Source: Flavobacteriaceae bacterium (GTDB lineage: Bacteria; Bacteroidota; Bacteroidia; Flavobacteriales; Flavobacteriaceae). Taken from it: 64,000 nucleotides of DNA. Both the position numbers and the translations under genes were made by a program. The stretch's first letter is position 1. Every line of letters begins with the position of its first letter. The stretch covers positions 62,001 through 126,000 of the forward strand of contig JABSPK010000004.1 in the NCBI GenBank assembly GCA_013214065.1, read 5' to 3'. This document shows positions 11,623 to 39,723 of the stretch, one piece after another. The notes beneath the pieces are model-generated. The model ran no database searches and was not told the origin of the DNA. It saw nothing but the letters and a program-made list of their open reading frames with translations.

Positions 11623-11819
11623 TGTTGCGCAATACCCTTAAAGTGCAACGGGCCATGAAGAACCTGACCCAAGAACAGTTGGCGAAATTGCTCGGGGTGT
11701 CAAGACAGACGATGAATTCCATTGAAAAGAACCGCTATGTGCCATCGACCGAATTGGCATTGAAGCTCTCCAAGGTCTTTGGCGTTTCGGTCAATGACCT
11801 CTTTGAATTGGAGGAATGA
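11619..11819 (+). CDS. XRE-family (Cro/CI-like) small transcriptional regulator
   Basis: This 66-residue protein is essentially a single helix-turn-helix domain. The HTH_3 pattern is clear: LTQEQLAKLLGVSRQTMNSIEKNRYVPSTELALKLSKVFGVSVNDLF, with the recognition helix around SRQTMNSIE. Length and sequence match the compact YozG/YgzD-like regulators that accompany small membrane proteins. It overlaps the upstream membrane-protein gene by 4 bp. The likely target is the pair of TGTAAA/TTTACA-type palindromes upstream of that gene, giving autoregulation. Confidence 0.9.
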   Translation: MMLRNTLKVQRAMKNLTQEQLAKLLGVSRQTMNSIEKNRYVPSTELALKLSKVFGVSVNDLFELEE

Positions 11820-11930
11820 TGGTATGGTACCCAAAAGTGCCATCGCACCGGTTCAGTAGCAGGTTGGGCGACTTGATTTGCCGCGACTTCGCATTTTTCG
11901 TATTATTAGCGATCTATCACAAGACTATCG

Positions 11931-12944
11931 ATGCAATTAGTTGACTTTATCATACAACTCGAAGACGTAAACGCACTCTCGAAGCACGAGCGTTTGGTCT
12001 TGGGTATCATGGAGGCCATCGATGCGGGGAATTTGCCTATTGGGAGTCAATTGCCATCGATCAATAGTATGGTCGAAGAACTGGGTTTTGCCCGAAAGAC
12101 CATCGTAAAGGCTTACGAAGAGCTGAAGGATCGGGGTTTGGTCGAATCGAAGAAGACGAAAGGCTATTTCGTGGTCAGTAACGAGACCAAAGTGTTTTTG
12201 AAAATCGCCCTGTTGATGTATTCCTTCCAGCGGTTCCAACAGGAGTTTTACAATACCCTTCGCGAGCAGTTGGGAGAGAAGGTACAGATCGATGTGTTTT
12301 TCCACCACAACAACATGGATGTGTTCGAGACTATTTTCCTGAACATCCGCGGTAAGTATGGGATGTACGTAGTCGCTCCGATAGAAGCGGATGCGGTCAA
12401 AGAGCTGCTTTCGACCATTCCGCCGGAAAAATTGGTGGTGGTTGACCGATATATTGCCCTGGGCGATGCCTATACGTATATCACCCAGGAGTTCGAACAA
12501 AGTACGTACGTCAATCTAAGCGGTTTGCTCCCCAAGATCCAGAAGTATAATGAAGTCATCCTATTTTTTCGAAACGATCTCGATTATCCAGAGGGGATAT
12601 TGAAGTCGTTCGTGAGGTTTTGCGAAGACCATGGCTTGACCTTTAAGGTCGAAAAGGCCTATCGTGCCAATTCGGTAAAAAAGGGGACTTCGTATTTGTT
12701 CATCAGTGATTCCGATCTTTGGTTGTTGCTTAAGGATTGTCGCAACTCCGATTACCGTATCGGCAAGGATGTGGGCGTTCTTTCGTTCAATGATCATATC
12801 GTCAAGGAAATCGTATCAGGGGGCATTACCACCATATCGACTGATTTCGATCGTATGGCAGCGACTACTGCGGAGCACATCCGTAATATTCAGGCGGTGA
12901 ACACCGTGGTTCCTACCACGCTTATCGAAAGAGACTCCCTGTAA
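11931..12944 (+). CDS. GntR-family regulator with periplasmic-binding-protein-like sensor domain
   Basis: This is a 337-residue transcription factor. Residues about 12-80 are a winged helix of the GntR type (GNLPIGSQLPSINSMVEELGFARKTIVKAYEELKDRGLV). Residues about 88-330 resemble a LacI/periplasmic-binding-protein-like ligand domain (DVGVLSFNDHIVKEIV and GGITTISTDFDRMAATTAEHI are typical). Such hybrids sense sugars or their phosphates in Bacteroidota. It is followed 149 bp later by the susC gene of the alpha-galactoside locus, so it most likely controls that locus in response to galactose or an alpha-galactoside. Ligand and operator are not deducible from sequence alone. Confidence 0.87.
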   Translation: MQLVDFIIQLEDVNALSKHERLVLGIMEAIDAGNLPIGSQLPSINSMVEELGFARKTIVKAYEELKDRGLVESKKTKGYFVVSNETKVFLKIALLMYSFQRFQQEFYNTLREQLGEKVQIDVFFHHNNMDVFETIFLNIRGKYGMYVVAPIEADAVKELLSTIPPEKLVVVDRYIALGDAYTYITQEFEQSTYVNLSGLLPKIQKYNEVILFFRNDLDYPEGILKSFVRFCEDHGLTFKVEKAYRANSVKKGTSYLFISDSDLWLLLKDCRNSDYRIGKDVGVLSFNDHIVKEIVSGGITTISTDFDRMAATTAEHIRNIQAVNTVVPTTLIERDSL

Positions 12945-33310: not shown

Positions 33311-34078
33311 TCATTCTTCGACCATCATATCGATTTCCGAAATGACCTGGGTGCCCAGGGCGCTCAATTCGCTATACTGGCCAACCATGGCATCGATTTG
33401 AAAGGCGGCTAGACTGATGACGTTTCGGTACGGGGCCGATCGGGTGTATTCGATAAATGCGGCATCGATTTCTTGTTGGGTGGTCGCCCGGTTCTTGAGC
33501 GAATCTTGGGGCATAAAAGCCGAAGCCAAGATCAAGGAGCGATCGTATTGGGTCGAAAGGAACCCCTCTTGGTCCACCGTGTAATCGTTGTAGCTCTTTT
33601 CGTTTTCGGCAATGGTCTCGACCATGGCGTGGTATTTGGCCAAAAGGGAATCCAAGGGCGTGTTGTTGATCTTACCGAAATAATCCGAATTCTTCAAGGC
33701 TTCATACCCGCCGACATTGGGTTTGAAGTAGTAATCGGCGAAGGCAAGACCACTGAACATAAAGAGCAGGAGGTTCTGATCTTCGGTTTTGTCCAAGATG
33801 CTGTTGCGTGCCTTTTTACAGAGATCGGCGATGCGTTTGCGGCCTACGGTGATGTCTTCAAGCTGGCGCAGGTCTTCTTGCGTATGCGATTTGATTTTGA
33901 CCAGGTATTCTTTCAGGGCTTTTTCTTCTTTGCGGGCTTCGTTCCAGTTGTTGATCTGCAGTGCGATCAAGATGCCGATAACTACCAGGGCGATCTCTCC
34001 TAGCGCGTACTTGAGGTATTGGGCGGACTTGCCTTCGGACAACAACTTACGGCGAATGGTCGTAAAAAAACGTAGCAT
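33311..34078 (-). CDS. DUF6090-family membrane-anchored protein
   Basis: This 255-residue protein has a charged N-terminus with LLSEGKSAQYLKYALGEIALVVIGILIALQINNWNE, the hallmark of flavobacterial DUF6090 proteins, with one transmembrane helix (about 28-45) and a helical C-terminal domain. Function is unknown; such genes often occur in tandem clusters. Its first codons and upstream 20 bases recur as a 37-bp repeat at 38110-38146, suggesting a former tandem copy on the other side of the toxin array. Confidence 0.87.
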   Translation of the reverse strand: MLRFFTTIRRKLLSEGKSAQYLKYALGEIALVVIGILIALQINNWNEARKEEKALKEYLVKIKSHTQEDLRQLEDITVGRKRIADLCKKARNSILDKTEDQNLLLFMFSGLAFADYYFKPNVGGYEALKNSDYFGKINNTPLDSLLAKYHAMVETIAENEKSYNDYTVDQEGFLSTQYDRSLILASAFMPQDSLKNRATTQQEIDAAFIEYTRSAPYRNVISLAAFQIDAMVGQYSELSALGTQVISEIDMMVEE

Positions 34079-34188: not shown

Positions 34189-36054
34189 ATGAAGCATTTT
34201 TATCCAACCCTGGTTGTTTCACTACTACTGCTTTTTTTGGGCTGTGAAGAACCGATGAACGAGCCTGTCTTAGAAGACGGTTCCACTCAAGAACCAGCTT
34301 CCTTGCCAACGACCACCTTCTTTACGGAAACGGTTACCCTTGATGAAATCCCCGAGATAGCGGATATTATCAATGCCCGGGCAGGAAAGGACATGCTTAC
34401 GGGTAAGGGTGCCAATGAGGAAGCCGTTTTCGATATCGAGCATATCGCAAAGGTCATCGATACCCTGAACAATACCTTGTACTCTTTCGGCTTTACTCTT
34501 CCCGATACCCCTAAGACCGTTGTCCATAATCTCGTGGTCGGGGTCGACTCCATAGGGGGGCAATACGCCCCCATCATTTTAAAGTATAGCTCTGATGAGG
34601 CTACCTATGATTCTTGGGCAGAGAGTGGATTCGACTTTGGTCATTTCACCGGTTCGGTGCAGCAACATGCCTTCAGCAGTTATTTCGATGACGGTCTGTT
34701 TTCGAAAACCGATTGTGAGGCGCAATTCGATGCCGTAGGAGATCCGATCCCTTGCAACGAGGATGTCTTTTCTGACGGAAGCGCCGGTGGCGGGTCTGCT
34801 AGTGGGGGCAGTGGATCTGGTAGTGGCAGTAGCGGTGGTTGTGTTTACGACAATACATTCGTTCCATGTGGCGGTTCGCATCAATACACTTTGCATGGAT
34901 CCGATTCTTGTGGGGGCAACGGTGATGGGTCGTATTGGGTGTTGGATGCAAGCTGCCCCAATGGAGGCAGTACCCACATCTTGAAAGGTGTCAACGATGC
35001 GTGTGACGATTGCGAATCGGGTCCATCGGGTGGCGCCGCGATCAACATCGACCTGGCGATGGCCGCTCGCATCTCGCTCTTAGTTGACACATTGGATCTC
35101 GATATTGGTTTGACGCAAGAGCAGATAAGTTTTTTGAACCCGCCTGAAAATTGGCCCCTTTCCGAATTGTTGACGGACTTTTTGAGGGACAATGAGTCGA
35201 GTGAAGAAGCGATCAATGCATCGCACATCACATTAAGGGCATTTCAAAATGACCTTTTGGAAGCACCTTTTGATGAAAGTATTATGGAGGAGGTCTATTG
35301 TTGTAGTCCTCATCTGATTACTAGTTCAACATTGGGATTGAACTACTATAATTACATGGAGGCCCAAGTGGCCATTATAAAATCCCAGTATCCTGAAGGT
35401 CATGAATTTACAGGATGGGATTTGACCAAGATTTATTTTGAGGCCAATTTGGACGCATTACAGCTCGGGCTGGATCTAATAGGCCTGATTCCCGCTTTCG
35501 GTGAAATTGCCGATATCGCAAATGGGGTGATTTACATTATTCGTGACGACGGTAAGAATGCGACCTTGAGTATGGTCTCGGCCATACCTATCGCGGGTTG
35601 GTTTTCTACCGGTACAAAACTTGGTTATAAGGTCGTGAACATCACTTCGGACATTTCAAGTCGCGTCACCTTGAAATGGATCGTCAAGGCCGACGGACTT
35701 ATCGAGTTTGGCAGGTCAAGTCAATTACGAAGGGTGCTGAAAATAACGGACTCTTCATTCCAAGCCCATCATATAATACCTTGGGCCAAAAGAAACCACC
35801 CTGCCGTACAAAAAGCTGCACAATCAAATAGCGCCTTTCACATGAATGAAGCTTTAAACGGAATACCCTTGGATACCTCCATCCATTTAGGCTCGCACCC
35901 GAATTACAGCAACCTTATCCAACAAAGACTTGACGAAATCGACATAAATCAATCACCGGATGAAATTTATGATGATATTTCGGCAATTATTTCTGACGTG
36001 CGTAATGCAATTGGTAATAACCCTGACACTCATATCAATAATTTGGTATTTTAG
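34189..36054 (+). CDS. Surface lipoprotein with C-terminal AHH nuclease (polymorphic toxin)
   Basis: This is a 621-residue lipoprotein ending in a nuclease-like toxin domain. Order: type II signal peptide with lipobox LFLGC, an acidic CEEPMNEP start that fits Bacteroidota surface-export signals; a conserved-looking N-terminal domain (about 30-190); a Gly/Ser-rich stalk followed by a Cys-rich segment (about 195-280); a helical region; a hydrophobic Gly-rich pre-toxin segment (about 425-484, with LIGLIPAFGEIADIANG and SAIPIAGWFSTG); and the AHH domain (about 525-621) with Ala526-His527-His528, NGIPL, His566 and GSHPNYS. AHH is a superfamily of HNH/EndoVII-type DNases used by polymorphic toxins. 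Downstream, after a 3-bp gap, is an Imm11-like immunity gene. Inference: contact-dependent or secreted competition toxin. Delivery route is unknown. Confidence 0.87.
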   Translation: MKHFYPTLVVSLLLLFLGCEEPMNEPVLEDGSTQEPASLPTTTFFTETVTLDEIPEIADIINARAGKDMLTGKGANEEAVFDIEHIAKVIDTLNNTLYSFGFTLPDTPKTVVHNLVVGVDSIGGQYAPIILKYSSDEATYDSWAESGFDFGHFTGSVQQHAFSSYFDDGLFSKTDCEAQFDAVGDPIPCNEDVFSDGSAGGGSASGGSGSGSGSSGGCVYDNTFVPCGGSHQYTLHGSDSCGGNGDGSYWVLDASCPNGGSTHILKGVNDACDDCESGPSGGAAINIDLAMAARISLLVDTLDLDIGLTQEQISFLNPPENWPLSELLTDFLRDNESSEEAINASHITLRAFQNDLLEAPFDESIMEEVYCCSPHLITSSTLGLNYYNYMEAQVAIIKSQYPEGHEFTGWDLTKIYFEANLDALQLGLDLIGLIPAFGEIADIANGVIYIIRDDGKNATLSMVSAIPIAGWFSTGTKLGYKVVNITSDISSRVTLKWIVKADGLIEFGRSSQLRRVLKITDSSFQAHHIIPWAKRNHPAVQKAAQSNSAFHMNEALNGIPLDTSIHLGSHPNYSNLIQQRLDEIDINQSPDEIYDDISAIISDVRNAIGNNPDTHINNLVF

Positions 36055-36057
36055 GAA

Positions 36058-36759
36058 ATGAATTTTTTTGTAATTAGACCTTCGACAGATACAAGGGTTA
36101 TCGGAAATTACCCTCAGGTAGAGGAAGTCATCCACAATTGCCACGTTTGGAATGAACCTAGGTTTATTGAACATTATCAATTCGAACAGGTTCTCGGGGA
36201 AGAACCCATTACTTCAAATGCCCGGCTTTATGATTCTTCCAAACTGACGGATCTTATCAGTGTTAGTGGGATTGGATTTACCAAAAGATTATTGATTTCC
36301 GACAAATTGAAAAACCTCTTGGAAACCCACCGAAGCCATGGGGTCCAATATTTCCCTTCCGACGTCATACAGAATGGGCAAAGACATACTGACTATTGGG
36401 TAATCAATTTCTTTGAGTCTGATGAAGAGCATGTCGATTTTATGGAGTCGCAGGTTGTAGTTCGAGTCCATAATCAAGATGGAGGGACAAGCAAAGAGAA
36501 AAGGGAGATAGACTCTTTGGGTGCGTTTCGAAAATACAAACCTAACAAAGATCGGAAAGAGAAACTTTTCATCGAAGGAGTCTGTCTTAAGAAGGAAACT
36601 CCTTTCGACTTTATTTGCTTACCCTATGTTGAAGGAGGTATAAAATATGTTGTTTCTGAAACCTTAAAGCAAAAAATACTGGCGAATAGTTGTACCGGAG
36701 TAGAATTTATGCCTTTGCACCTGTCGCTAGCAGAATGGCAATTGTCCCAAACGTCATGA
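36058..36759 (+). CDS. Imm11/DUF1629-like immunity protein
   Basis: This 233-residue cytosolic protein is the likely antitoxin of the AHH lipoprotein toxin, whose stop lies 3 bp upstream. It resembles the Imm11/DUF1629 immunity family, with a C-terminal pattern (IKYVVSETLKQKILANSCTGVEFMPL) shared with the second immunity protein here (GYFISERLKDAIEQRRFTGMAFREI). The N-terminus, with PQVEEVIHNCHVW, is nearly repeated in a truncated third gene at 37939. It is the sort of gene found immediately downstream of AHH toxins. Assignment to Imm11 is by pattern, not database search; the immunity role rests on adjacency. Confidence 0.7.
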   Translation: MNFFVIRPSTDTRVIGNYPQVEEVIHNCHVWNEPRFIEHYQFEQVLGEEPITSNARLYDSSKLTDLISVSGIGFTKRLLISDKLKNLLETHRSHGVQYFPSDVIQNGQRHTDYWVINFFESDEEHVDFMESQVVVRVHNQDGGTSKEKREIDSLGAFRKYKPNKDRKEKLFIEGVCLKKETPFDFICLPYVEGGIKYVVSETLKQKILANSCTGVEFMPLHLSLAEWQLSQTS

Positions 36760-36793: not shown

Positions 36794-37154
36794 GTGGAAG
36801 TGCTTAAGACAACGGGGACAGAACAGCAAGCGCACCATATCATCCCATGGGCATTCAAGGATTCGGATATTGTTCAAAAAGCGGCGAAGTCAAGGAACGC
36901 ATTTCATATGAACGAAGCGTTAAATGGTATACCTTTACCTTCGACCAATCATTTGACCGGGCATAATTCTTTTGGGGGATATAATGATACAGCCTGAGTC
37001 AATATTCTCAACGAACGGACCGGATATTGACAATATGACTCCTGATCAGGCTTATGATTTTTTAAAAGGCCTGGCGGATCATATCAGGGATTTGATCGAA
37101 TCGAACCCTGCCAAGAACTTGGGTGAGATTGCGGATTTAATCAATTATCCCTAA
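36794..37154 (+). pseudogene. Displaced, broken AHH toxin C-terminal cassette
   Basis: Starting at GTG 36794 the frame reads VLKTTGTEQQAHHIIPWAFK, then FHMNEALNGIPL, and HLTGHNSFGGYNDTA before a TGA at 36995-36997. The rest of the domain (DIDNMTPDQAYDFLKGLADH, then IRDLIESNP) continues in the +1 frame to the TAA at 37154. Homology with the intact toxin begins exactly at VLK upstream of AHH, so only the toxin tip is present, with no signal peptide or stalk. A nonsense codon and a frameshift make it inactive. It is the typical orphan cassette of polymorphic toxin loci. Confidence 0.85.
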
Positions 37155-37161
37155 TAACGAA

Positions 37162-37845
37162 ATGAATTATTTTCAGTTAACACATATCGGTGCCAACAGA
37201 AGGGAGACAGGTGTTTCCCCTCAATGCACCGATTCCATATGCATTGGGGATATCCAAAAAATACGGGTGCCCTCGCAAGGCAAGATTCATGATGCCTTTG
37301 CACTTCCTGTTCCCAGACTTGAAAAAAGGGCAAGACCCTCAACGATGTTGAGTGTTGTTGCCGTACCAACTCATTTTCTAGTGGTAAAAAGCCACTTTAT
37401 TGATTTTTTAGAAGGATTTAAAGTTCCCGGTTTTCAAAAATGGAACATAGCCGTCCATCATAAAAAAACCGTGATTCATGACTATAATCTATTCTTGATC
37501 AACAGTTTACTTCACCAGGACATCATAGACTTTGACAAAAGCGAGTTTTGCCTGGGTTCCTTTAAAGATTTTAGGTGGAACGGAGAGAAAATCAACGTCA
37601 CCAATTATGAAAATTATTTAAGCCAACAAGAGATACTTAGGGAAGAAAATTTAAGGTTAAAAACGCTCAAGGTGGTTTTAAACTTCAAAAGTGTCCAAGC
37701 GGATATGTTTCGTATGAACATTACACCCCTTTCTGGTTATTTTATTTCAGAAAGACTTAAGGACGCAATAGAACAAAGGCGGTTTACCGGCATGGCGTTT
37801 CGAGAAATTGAAAGCCTAAAAAAGATTGAAGTCATCAACAAGTAA
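37162..37845 (+). CDS. Second Imm11/DUF1629-like immunity protein
   Basis: This 227-residue intact gene follows the orphan AHH cassette with 7 bp between its ATG and the cassette stop. Its C-terminal part, GYFISERLKDAIEQRRFTGMAFREIESL, aligns with the first immunity protein, and the two share the N-terminal MN[FY]F start, but the middle is strongly diverged, as expected for immunity proteins matched to different toxins. It is AT-rich (18 of 60 bases G+C at 37381-37440). The cognate toxin tip next to it is broken, so its present role is likely cross-protection against relatives' toxins. Confidence 0.7.
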   Translation: MNYFQLTHIGANRRETGVSPQCTDSICIGDIQKIRVPSQGKIHDAFALPVPRLEKRARPSTMLSVVAVPTHFLVVKSHFIDFLEGFKVPGFQKWNIAVHHKKTVIHDYNLFLINSLLHQDIIDFDKSEFCLGSFKDFRWNGEKINVTNYENYLSQQEILREENLRLKTLKVVLNFKSVQADMFRMNITPLSGYFISERLKDAIEQRRFTGMAFREIESLKKIEVINK

Positions 37846-39502: not shown

Positions 39503-39511
39503 AGCTTTTCG

Positions 39512-39595
39512 TACTCGAGGCGGGACTTGAACCCGCACGGGCAAATGCCCACAGGATTTTAAGTCCGGCGTGTCTACCAATTCCACCACTCGAGC
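39512..39595 (-). tRNA. tRNA-Leu (anticodon UAA)
   Basis: The 84-nt sequence folds as a class II tRNA with a 7-bp acceptor stem (GCTCGAG with CTCGAGT), D-loop TGGTGGAATTGGTAGACA, anticodon loop CTTAAAA with UAA, a long variable arm and T-loop GGTTCAAGTCC. CCA is not encoded. It is the second gene of a tRNA-Gly/tRNA-Leu operon and is followed by a terminator. Confidence 0.96.
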
Positions 39596-39650
39596 CATTG
39601 GACTTATCAAAAAAAAACTCCACCCGTGTGGACTGAGCGGAGTCATGTCG

Positions 39651-39723
39651 AGCGAAAAACGGGATTCGAACCCGCGACCTCCACCTTGGCAAGGTGATGC
39701 TCTACCAACTGAGCTATTTTCGC
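39651..39723 (-). tRNA. tRNA-Gly (anticodon GCC)
   Basis: The 73-nt sequence has acceptor GCGAAAA with TTTTCGC, D-arm AGCTCAGTTGGTAGAGC, anticodon loop TTGGCAA (GCC) and T-loop GGTTCGAATCC. CCA is not encoded. It is the first gene of the operon, 29 bp downstream of a strong promoter start region. Confidence 0.96.

What the first reader, a model, noticed from the sequence alone, without database searches (positions are those of the whole stretch)
34189..36759. Lipoprotein-anchored AHH nuclease toxin with adjacent immunity gene
Sequence shows a lipobox, an acidic post-Cys stretch typical of surface-exposed Bacteroidota lipoproteins, a Ser/Gly and Cys-rich stalk, a hydrophobic pre-toxin segment and a C-terminal AHH nuclease, followed 3 bp later by an Imm11-like gene. 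Known polymorphic toxins with AHH tips are usually Rhs, T6SS, T9SS or CDI cargo; a surface lipoprotein carrier is unusual, and how the nuclease would be released and enter a rival is open. This is my best candidate for an undescribed competition system.
Basis: partly seen in the sequence, partly recalled or inferred. Interest (0 to 1): 0.8.

Follow-up and report, generated by a model that had tools for sequence, protein, structure and literature searches.

The report
Surface-lipoprotein toxin with swappable warheads
A Flavobacteriaceae-type genome carries a lipid-anchored protein ending in a DNA-cutting warhead next to its antidote gene, and it belongs to a large, barely described family in which the same surface anchor carries dozens of unrelated warheads, pointing to a weapon system between neighbouring bacteria.

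Summary
ORF 34189-36054 is a 621-aa lipoprotein with a C-terminal AHH nuclease (PF14412, E=7e-15); 3 bp later lies an Imm11 gene (E=4.6e-7). The N-domain has no Pfam or NCBIfam match, yet occurs in 64 of 397 sampled genomes of the family. Among 79 homologues the C-termini form 31 clusters; close paralogues have near-identical N-domains with unrelated tips. Carriers show the Bacteroidota surface-export signal (acidic at +4 in 60/64); partner lipoproteins lack it (3/28). Nuclease tips pair with cytoplasmic partners and a hydrophobic pre-toxin segment; envelope-acting tips pair with exported partners. No T6SS was found in the genome. So: a polymorphic toxin on a surface-lipoprotein carrier, mechanistically like myxobacterial SitA. 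It is not wholly undescribed: a 2025 study reports lipobox, 'cystatin-like' polymorphic toxins that are probably this family. This member's own export signal is atypical; toxicity, surface exposure and entry route are inferred.

The parts
34189..36054 (+). Carrier toxin gene, 621 aa: lipoprotein signal, N-domain, stalk, pre-toxin segment, AHH tip
   Evidence: ORF; PF14412 E=7e-15
34189..34245 (+). Type II signal peptide and lipid-attachment Cys19 (LFLGC), followed by EEPMN (acidic at +2 and +3, no K-(D/E)2 motif)
   Evidence: Sequence; family comparison
34321..34692 (+). Conserved N-domain (residues 45-168), order b-a-b-b-b-b-a-b, no Pfam or NCBIfam match; shared by 79 carriers
   Evidence: HMM, AlphaFold2 pLDDT mostly >90
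34771..35043 (+). Gly/Ser-rich and Cys-rich stalk (residues 195-285), low-confidence structure; Cys189 just before it is an invariant alignment column
   Evidence: Sequence; A4 conservation
35422..35658 (+). Hydrophobic pre-toxin segment (residues 412-490, LDLIGLIPAFGEIADIANGV...), also found in Rhs-type toxins L048 and L049
35719..36051 (+). AHH nuclease tip (residues 511-621); AHH motif at 35764-35772; 39.5% G+C against 48% for the N-domain
36058..36759 (+). Imm11 immunity gene 1, 233 aa, no signal peptide
   Evidence: PF07791 E=4.6e-7; N-terminus test
36797..37154 (+). Orphan AHH-tip remnant: 36797-36994 in one frame, 36984-37154 in another, no own start; 62% and 58% identical over the aligned 60 and 40 residues to the intact L034 tip
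37162..37845 (+). Imm11 immunity gene 2, 227 aa, 40% identical to the immunity protein next to the L034 tip

Best explanation
This is a polymorphic toxin/immunity locus whose carrier is an outer-membrane lipoprotein. Shown by sequence: lipobox, conserved N-domain, stalk, hydrophobic pre-toxin segment and AHH nuclease tip, an Imm11 gene 3 bp downstream, and a displaced older cassette (broken tip plus Imm11) behind it. Shown by comparison: the N-domain is constant while tips are swapped freely, with nuclease tips paired to cytoplasmic partner proteins and envelope-acting tips to exported ones. Inferred: the lipoprotein is flipped to the cell surface by the Bacteroidota lipoprotein export pathway and reaches a neighbour by contact or on outer-membrane vesicles; the N-domain and stalk act as the display/escort part; the pre-toxin segment helps the nuclease cross the inner membrane; the nuclease cuts DNA or RNA of related cells lacking Imm11, which binds the tip in the cytoplasm of the producer. 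My estimates: identity as a polymorphic toxin about 0.9; surface display for the family about 0.85, for this member about 0.6; vesicle or contact delivery about 0.4.
For: AHH and Imm11 matches over curated cut-offs. N-domain in 64/397 sampled family genomes, 56/237 genera. 31 clusters of C-termini in 79 carriers, including AHH, WHH/colicin DNase, Tae4, GH19, SprT-like, DUF6973. Same-genome paralogues: L113/L114 N 97%, C 2%; L101/L103 93%/11%; L033 (AHH)/L100 (HExxH tip) 78-79%/12%. 61/79 carriers have a same-strand ORF starting within -30..+80 bp, 0/79 on the opposite strand; one partner is PoNi (E=4.8e-26), the immunity family of the PoNe DNase toxins (PMC6688995). Orphan cassette. Export signal: acidic at +4 in 60/64 carriers, 3/28 partner lipoproteins, 12% of 42 other putative lipoproteins. 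Partner N-termini fall into two groups, 12 cytoplasmic and 45 exported; pre-toxin hydrophobicity tracks this (Fisher p=1.8e-4, Mann-Whitney p=5e-5). Same pre-toxin+AHH+Imm11-like module on an Rhs carrier. No T6SS sheath gene found in the genome.
Against: The window protein's own post-Cys sequence (CEEPMN) is not the canonical export motif; it is one of only 4/64 carriers without an acidic residue at +4. No toxicity, localisation or interaction data. The fold of the N-domain matches nothing strongly. Only one genome of this genus is held, so strain-level tip swapping was not seen directly. The localisation/hydrophobicity association counts related proteins separately, and its thresholds were chosen after seeing the data.
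Confidence: 0.8

Rival explanations
1. Surface scavenging enzyme: the lipoprotein is a nutrient-harvesting nuclease, as many Bacteroidota surface lipoproteins are hydrolases, and Imm11 is incidental.
For: Export-signal lipoproteins in this phylum are often hydrolases (PMC6222051); zincin and GH19-like tips exist in the family.
Against: Scavenging enzymes need no cytoplasmic antidote and no orphan tip/Imm cassettes, and would not share one carrier with Tae4, a PoNi-paired tip, WHH and AHH tips.
Confidence: 0.06
2. Cargo of a known injection or secretion machine (T6SS, T9SS, CDI, Rhs) that happens to have a lipobox.
For: All 44 tested carrier genomes have T9SS-tail proteins; a similar tip module rides on Rhs proteins in relatives.
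Against: No VipB in 44 carrier genomes; Bacteroidota TssC in only 8/44 and not in this genome; no T9SS tail, PAAR, Rhs or TANFOR match in the protein.
Confidence: 0.1
3. SitA-like delivery by bulk outer-membrane exchange between touching cells, rather than vesicles or receptor-mediated uptake from the surface.
For: Same architecture: lipoprotein, conserved escort domain, variable nuclease C-terminus, adjacent immunity gene (PMC5562445, PMC8546572).
Against: Surface display would not be needed for bulk exchange, yet the family conserves an export signal. TraA/TraB were not searched for here.
Confidence: 0.2
4. The locus is a decaying relic with no present function.
For: The downstream cassette is frame-broken and the export signal of this member is atypical.
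Against: The 621-aa frame is intact with all AHH motif residues, and both Imm11 genes are intact; broken orphan tips with intact immunity genes are common behind active polymorphic toxins (general knowledge).
Confidence: 0.08

Closest known systems
Lipobox polymorphic toxins with an N-terminal cystatin-like domain (eLife 2025, PMC12419801)
   Same: Lipobox, small N-domain, many C-terminal toxin tips including VanY-like and papain-like ones, each with an immunity gene; proposed there as a new packaging/deployment system.
   Different: That paper lists mainly lipid- and envelope-acting tips; its sequences could not be compared here, and the cystatin-like fold is only weakly supported by our model. 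Nuclease tips with pre-toxin segments, the export signal, the two classes of partner and the orphan cassette are not mentioned in the passages read.
SitA toxins of myxobacteria (PMC5562445, PMC8546572)
   Same: Outer-membrane lipoproteins with conserved N-terminal escort domains, polymorphic nuclease C-termini (SitA1 has a WHH domain) and adjacent immunity genes.
   Different: Different phylum; SitA homologues were reported only in Myxococcales and depend on TraA/B outer-membrane exchange; SitA tips target the cytoplasm, whereas this family also carries envelope-acting tips.
AHH/Imm11 polymorphic toxin cassettes (Biol Direct 2012, PMC3482391)
   Same: Tox-AHH with Imm11, a pairing already listed for Bacteroidetes.
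   Different: Export routes listed there for Tox-AHH are T2SS, T5SS, T6SS, T7SS and TcdB/TcaC, not an export-signal lipoprotein.
Bacteroidales BSAP toxins (PMC12853789)
   Same: Antibacterial surface lipoproteins targeted by a lipoprotein export signal.
   Different: MACPF pore-formers with receptor-binding C-terminal domains, not swappable enzyme tips.
TANFOR polymorphic toxins of Bacteroidetes (PMC7073777)
   Same: Bacteroidota N-domain with AHH, WHH, PoNe and other tips and adjacent immunity genes.
   Different: Large proteins with a TANFOR domain and a proposed T9SS link; no TANFOR match here.
Amoebophilus APD1/APD2 and Neisseria MafB (PMC3482391, section 37)
   Same: Lineage-specific anchoring N-domains with variable C-termini; APD proteins have a lipobox.
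   Different: APD effectors are predicted to act on a eukaryotic host; MafB relies on a separate lipoprotein, MafA.

Membership tests
Polymorphic toxin system | Conserved N-terminal region with unrelated C-terminal tips | tested here: met
   N-domain 71-97% identical with C-terminal 120 residues 2-37% identical in the ten closest pairs; 31 tip clusters
Polymorphic toxin system | Immunity gene directly downstream | tested here: met
   Imm11 3 bp downstream; 61/79 carriers have a close same-strand partner ORF
Polymorphic toxin system | Orphan tip/immunity cassettes downstream | tested here: met
   36797-37845 matches the L034 tip/immunity pair
Polymorphic toxin system | Tip toxic and neutralised by the cognate immunity protein | not testable with these tools
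   Needs expression in a laboratory strain
AHH nuclease (PF14412) | Profile match and AHH, N, H, H, Y residues | tested here: met
   E=7e-15; alignment
AHH nuclease (PF14412) | Nuclease activity | not testable with these tools
   No biochemical data
Imm11 (PF07791) | Profile match over the curated cut-off | tested here: met
   29.8 and 25.9 bits against a cut-off of 22.1
Lipoprotein export signal (LES) surface lipoproteins | K-(D/E)2 or Q-A-(D/E)2, or S-(D/E)2-type acidic motif just after the lipid Cys | tested here: inconclusive
   Met for the family (acidic at +4 in 60/64) but the window protein has CEEPMN
SitA | Lipobox and polymorphic nuclease C-terminus | tested here: met
SitA | SitA escort-domain homology and TraA/B-dependent transfer | not tested
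   No SitA sequence was compared and TraA/B was not searched; the paper reports SitA homologues only in Myxococcales
Lipobox cystatin-like polymorphic toxins (2025) | N-terminal domain of cystatin-like fold | tested here: inconclusive
   Element order b-a-b-b-b-b fits; best VIA rows are monellin (Z 4.9, rmsd 3.9, 75 aligned), a DUF2874 protein (Z 4.7) and cystatin F (Z 4.6), below the reliable range; no Foldseek match at E<=0.001
Lipobox cystatin-like polymorphic toxins (2025) | Sequence identity with the published N-domain set | not testable with these tools
T9SS cargo | C-terminal T9SS sorting domain (TIGR04183) | tested here: not met
   No NCBIfam match at E<=1
TANFOR polymorphic toxin | N-terminal TANFOR domain (TIGR02542) | tested here: not met
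   No NCBIfam match at E<=1; presence of TIGR02542 in this NCBIfam copy was assumed
T6SS effector | T6SS in the genome | tested here: not met
   No VipB and no Bacteroidota TssC in this 99.3% complete genome

The most novel reading that the evidence does not exclude
A T6SS-independent, surface-lipoprotein delivery class widespread in Flavobacteriaceae, in which one escort N-domain and the lipoprotein export signal bring any warhead to the envelope of a rival, and a removable pre-toxin module decides whether the warhead stops in the periplasm or enters the cytoplasm, with the matching immunity protein placed in the corresponding compartment.
Probability: 0.45. Interest if true: 0.8.

Novelty: new variant of a known kind. 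Interest (0 to 1): 0.6.

Why it matters
If right, many flavobacteria (about one sampled genome in six of this family) display polymorphic toxins as surface lipoproteins, which would make the phylum's lipoprotein export pathway a weapon-delivery route and give Bacteroidota a counterpart of the myxobacterial SitA system. The paired pattern (export signal on toxin but not on partner; cytoplasmic partner with pre-toxin segment, exported partner without) makes the entry route testable by comparing natural paralogues, such as the AHH and HExxH carriers L033 and L100 of one genome, whose N-domains are 78% identical.

Tried and rejected
First genome-contig scan with the whole protein found nothing; the 17-row alignment was too divergent for a scan; a 4-row alignment gave five relatives with record titles, among them Algibacter and Confluentibacter. 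PDB sequence searches with the N-domain profile and the AHH tip gave no useful match. Foldseek with the full model and with the N-domain model gave no match at E<=0.001; VIA rows for the full model were dominated by helices. PADLOC (anti-phage defence) gave no match. Considered and rejected: T6SS effector, T9SS cargo, TANFOR toxin, Rhs/CDI carrier, defence gene, scavenging nuclease. A first reading of the orphan remnant used a wrong frame offset and was replaced. The orphan tip was only read in separate pieces.

Full report
What is there. The window holds an intact 621-codon gene at 34189-36054 on the + strand. Its product begins with a type II signal peptide ending LFLGC (Cys19), followed by EEPMNEPVLEDG, then a folded N-domain (residues 45-168), a Gly/Ser- and Cys-rich stretch, a helical part, a hydrophobic pre-toxin segment (412-490) and a C-terminal AHH nuclease domain (PF14412, 55.4 bits, E=7e-15, cut-off 22.3). 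The residues given for Tox-AHH in PMC3482391 are all present. Three bases after the stop starts a 233-aa Imm11 gene (E=4.6e-7, over the cut-off). The AHH-Imm11 pairing is already listed for Bacteroidetes in PMC3482391.

Directly behind the Imm11 gene lies a second cassette. 36797-36994 reads EVLKTTGTEQQAHHIIPWA... without a start codon; it breaks frame and its end is read in another frame to 37154. The two pieces are 62% and 58% identical (over 60 and 40 aligned residues) to the intact tip of a related carrier, L034, and the following gene 37162-37845 is 40% identical to the immunity protein next to that tip, while the first Imm11 is only 24% identical to it. The window thus keeps the remains of a displaced toxin allele with its antidote, the usual trace of serial tip replacement. 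Tip and Imm genes have 39-40% G+C against 48% for the N-domain. No other AHH or Imm11 match exists in the genome.

The carrier family. The N-domain has no Pfam or NCBIfam match in any of 69 carriers scanned. A profile finds it in 64 of 397 sampled genomes of the same family and 56 of 237 genera; in a phylum-wide sample all matches lie in the same family, order or class. Relatives with record titles include Algibacter and Confluentibacter. I collected 79 carriers. Their last 160 residues form 31 BLAST clusters with Pfam matches to AHH, SprT-like, DUF6973, Tae4, DUF4056, GH19, WHH and colicin DNase. The most telling pairs share a genome: N-domains 97% identical with C-termini 2% (L113/L114), 93% and 11% (L101/L103), 79% and 12% (L033 with AHH, L100 with a HExxH tip); of 53 pairs with N-domain identity of 35% or more, 49 have C-terminal identity below 25%.

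Partner genes. 61 of 79 carriers have a same-strand ORF of at least 80 aa starting within -30 to +80 bp of the stop; none has one on the opposite strand. A few of these belong to carriers that look frame-broken, where the downstream ORF is probably the carrier's own remainder; four such cases were left out of the next test. One partner is PoNi (E=4.8e-26), the immunity family of the PoNe DNase toxins (PMC6688995), behind a carrier whose tip looks like a restriction-endonuclease fold by eye. In 57 usable pairs the partner's N-terminus falls into two groups: 45 with a signal peptide or lipobox, 12 without. The 12 include all four AHH carriers, the WHH carrier and the PoNi partner; Tae4, GH19 and DUF6973 tips have exported partners. 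Carriers with cytoplasmic partners have a more hydrophobic segment before the tip (19-residue mean hydropathy of at least 1.4 in 9/12 against 7/45, Fisher p=1.8e-4; Mann-Whitney p=5e-5). Three thresholds were tried and relatives are not independent, so this is a strong lead rather than proof. The pre-toxin segment with AHH and an Imm11-like neighbour also occurs on an Rhs protein (L048), so the module moves between carriers.

Surface export. After the lipid-bearing Cys the family consensus is Q-K-(D/E)-(D/E), the Capnocytophaga lipoprotein export signal QKDDE (PMC5080379). Position +4 is acidic in 60/64 carriers, 3/28 partner lipoproteins (p=3e-15) and 12% of 42 other putative lipoproteins in the same stretches. 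Toxin outside, antidote inside the envelope is the arrangement expected of a weapon. In Bacteroides this type of signal also drives packing into outer-membrane vesicles (PMC6222051). The window protein itself has CEEPMN, acidic at +2 and +3 only, so its surface exposure is less certain than that of its relatives.

Delivery. The genome, 99.3% complete, has no T6SS sheath gene of either type tested; Bacteroidota TssC is in 8 of 44 carrier genomes and VipB in none. T9SS-tail proteins are in all 44, but the window protein has no such tail. I therefore favour surface display followed by contact or vesicle delivery, with the pre-toxin segment helping the nuclease into the cytoplasm. This step is inferred.

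Structure. AlphaFold2 with 75 family rows gives the N-domain with pLDDT mostly over 90 and the order b-a-b-b-b-b-a-b. Foldseek finds nothing at E<=0.001. The best second-look rows are monellin, a Bacteroides DUF2874 protein and cystatin F at Z 4.6-4.9, compatible with a cystatin-like fold but within the range of chance arrangements. This matters because PMC12419801 reports lipobox polymorphic toxins with an N-terminal cystatin-like domain and tips including a VanY-like and a papain-like one, both of which I see by motif in this family. I think it likely (about 0.65, my judgement) that this is the same carrier class, but could not compare sequences.

Verdict. The finding is real and is a polymorphic toxin/immunity locus on a lipoprotein carrier. 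It works like SitA of myxobacteria (PMC5562445, PMC8546572) but is not shown to be a member of that family. The carrier class was probably noted in 2025. New here, as far as I could find, are the nuclease branch with pre-toxin segment, the export-signal contrast between toxin and antidote, the two classes of partner, the prevalence, and the orphan cassette.

Noticed in passing
L044:9583-11679 (G000:C21, same genome): A second carrier of the same N-domain family in this genome, with an unrelated HExxH (zincin-like) tip and an exported partner gene (11679-12152).
   Followed up: partly
L131:431-3234: Carrier with a restriction-endonuclease-like tip followed by a PoNi immunity gene (E=4.8e-26), an independent sign that carriers bear DNase toxins.
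   Followed up: partly
L048:8806-14277: Rhs-repeat protein with the same pre-toxin segment, an AHH tip and an Imm11-like neighbour: the same cassette on a different carrier.
   Followed up: partly
L041, L125, L126, L142: Carrier frames that stop early, the downstream ORF looking like the carrier's own remainder: apparently frame-broken or mis-sequenced carriers.
   Followed up: no
L046:4655-5194 and other partner genes: DUF6705 (PF20448) matches 7 of 58 partner proteins, suggesting that this family of unknown function is an exported immunity protein.
   Followed up: no
window 34753-34755 (Cys189): A cysteine just after the N-domain (GDPIPC in the window) is an invariant column in an alignment of 69 carriers, perhaps a disulfide or processing feature at the domain-stalk junction.
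   Followed up: no
window 39511-39723: tRNA-Leu and tRNA-Gly genes about 1.7 kb downstream of the second cassette; a possible integration site, not examined.
   Followed up: no
window 33311-34078: The upstream neighbour, on the opposite strand, is a DUF6090 protein (E=1.5e-12); there is no SitB-like co-directional gene directly before the toxin.
   Followed up: no
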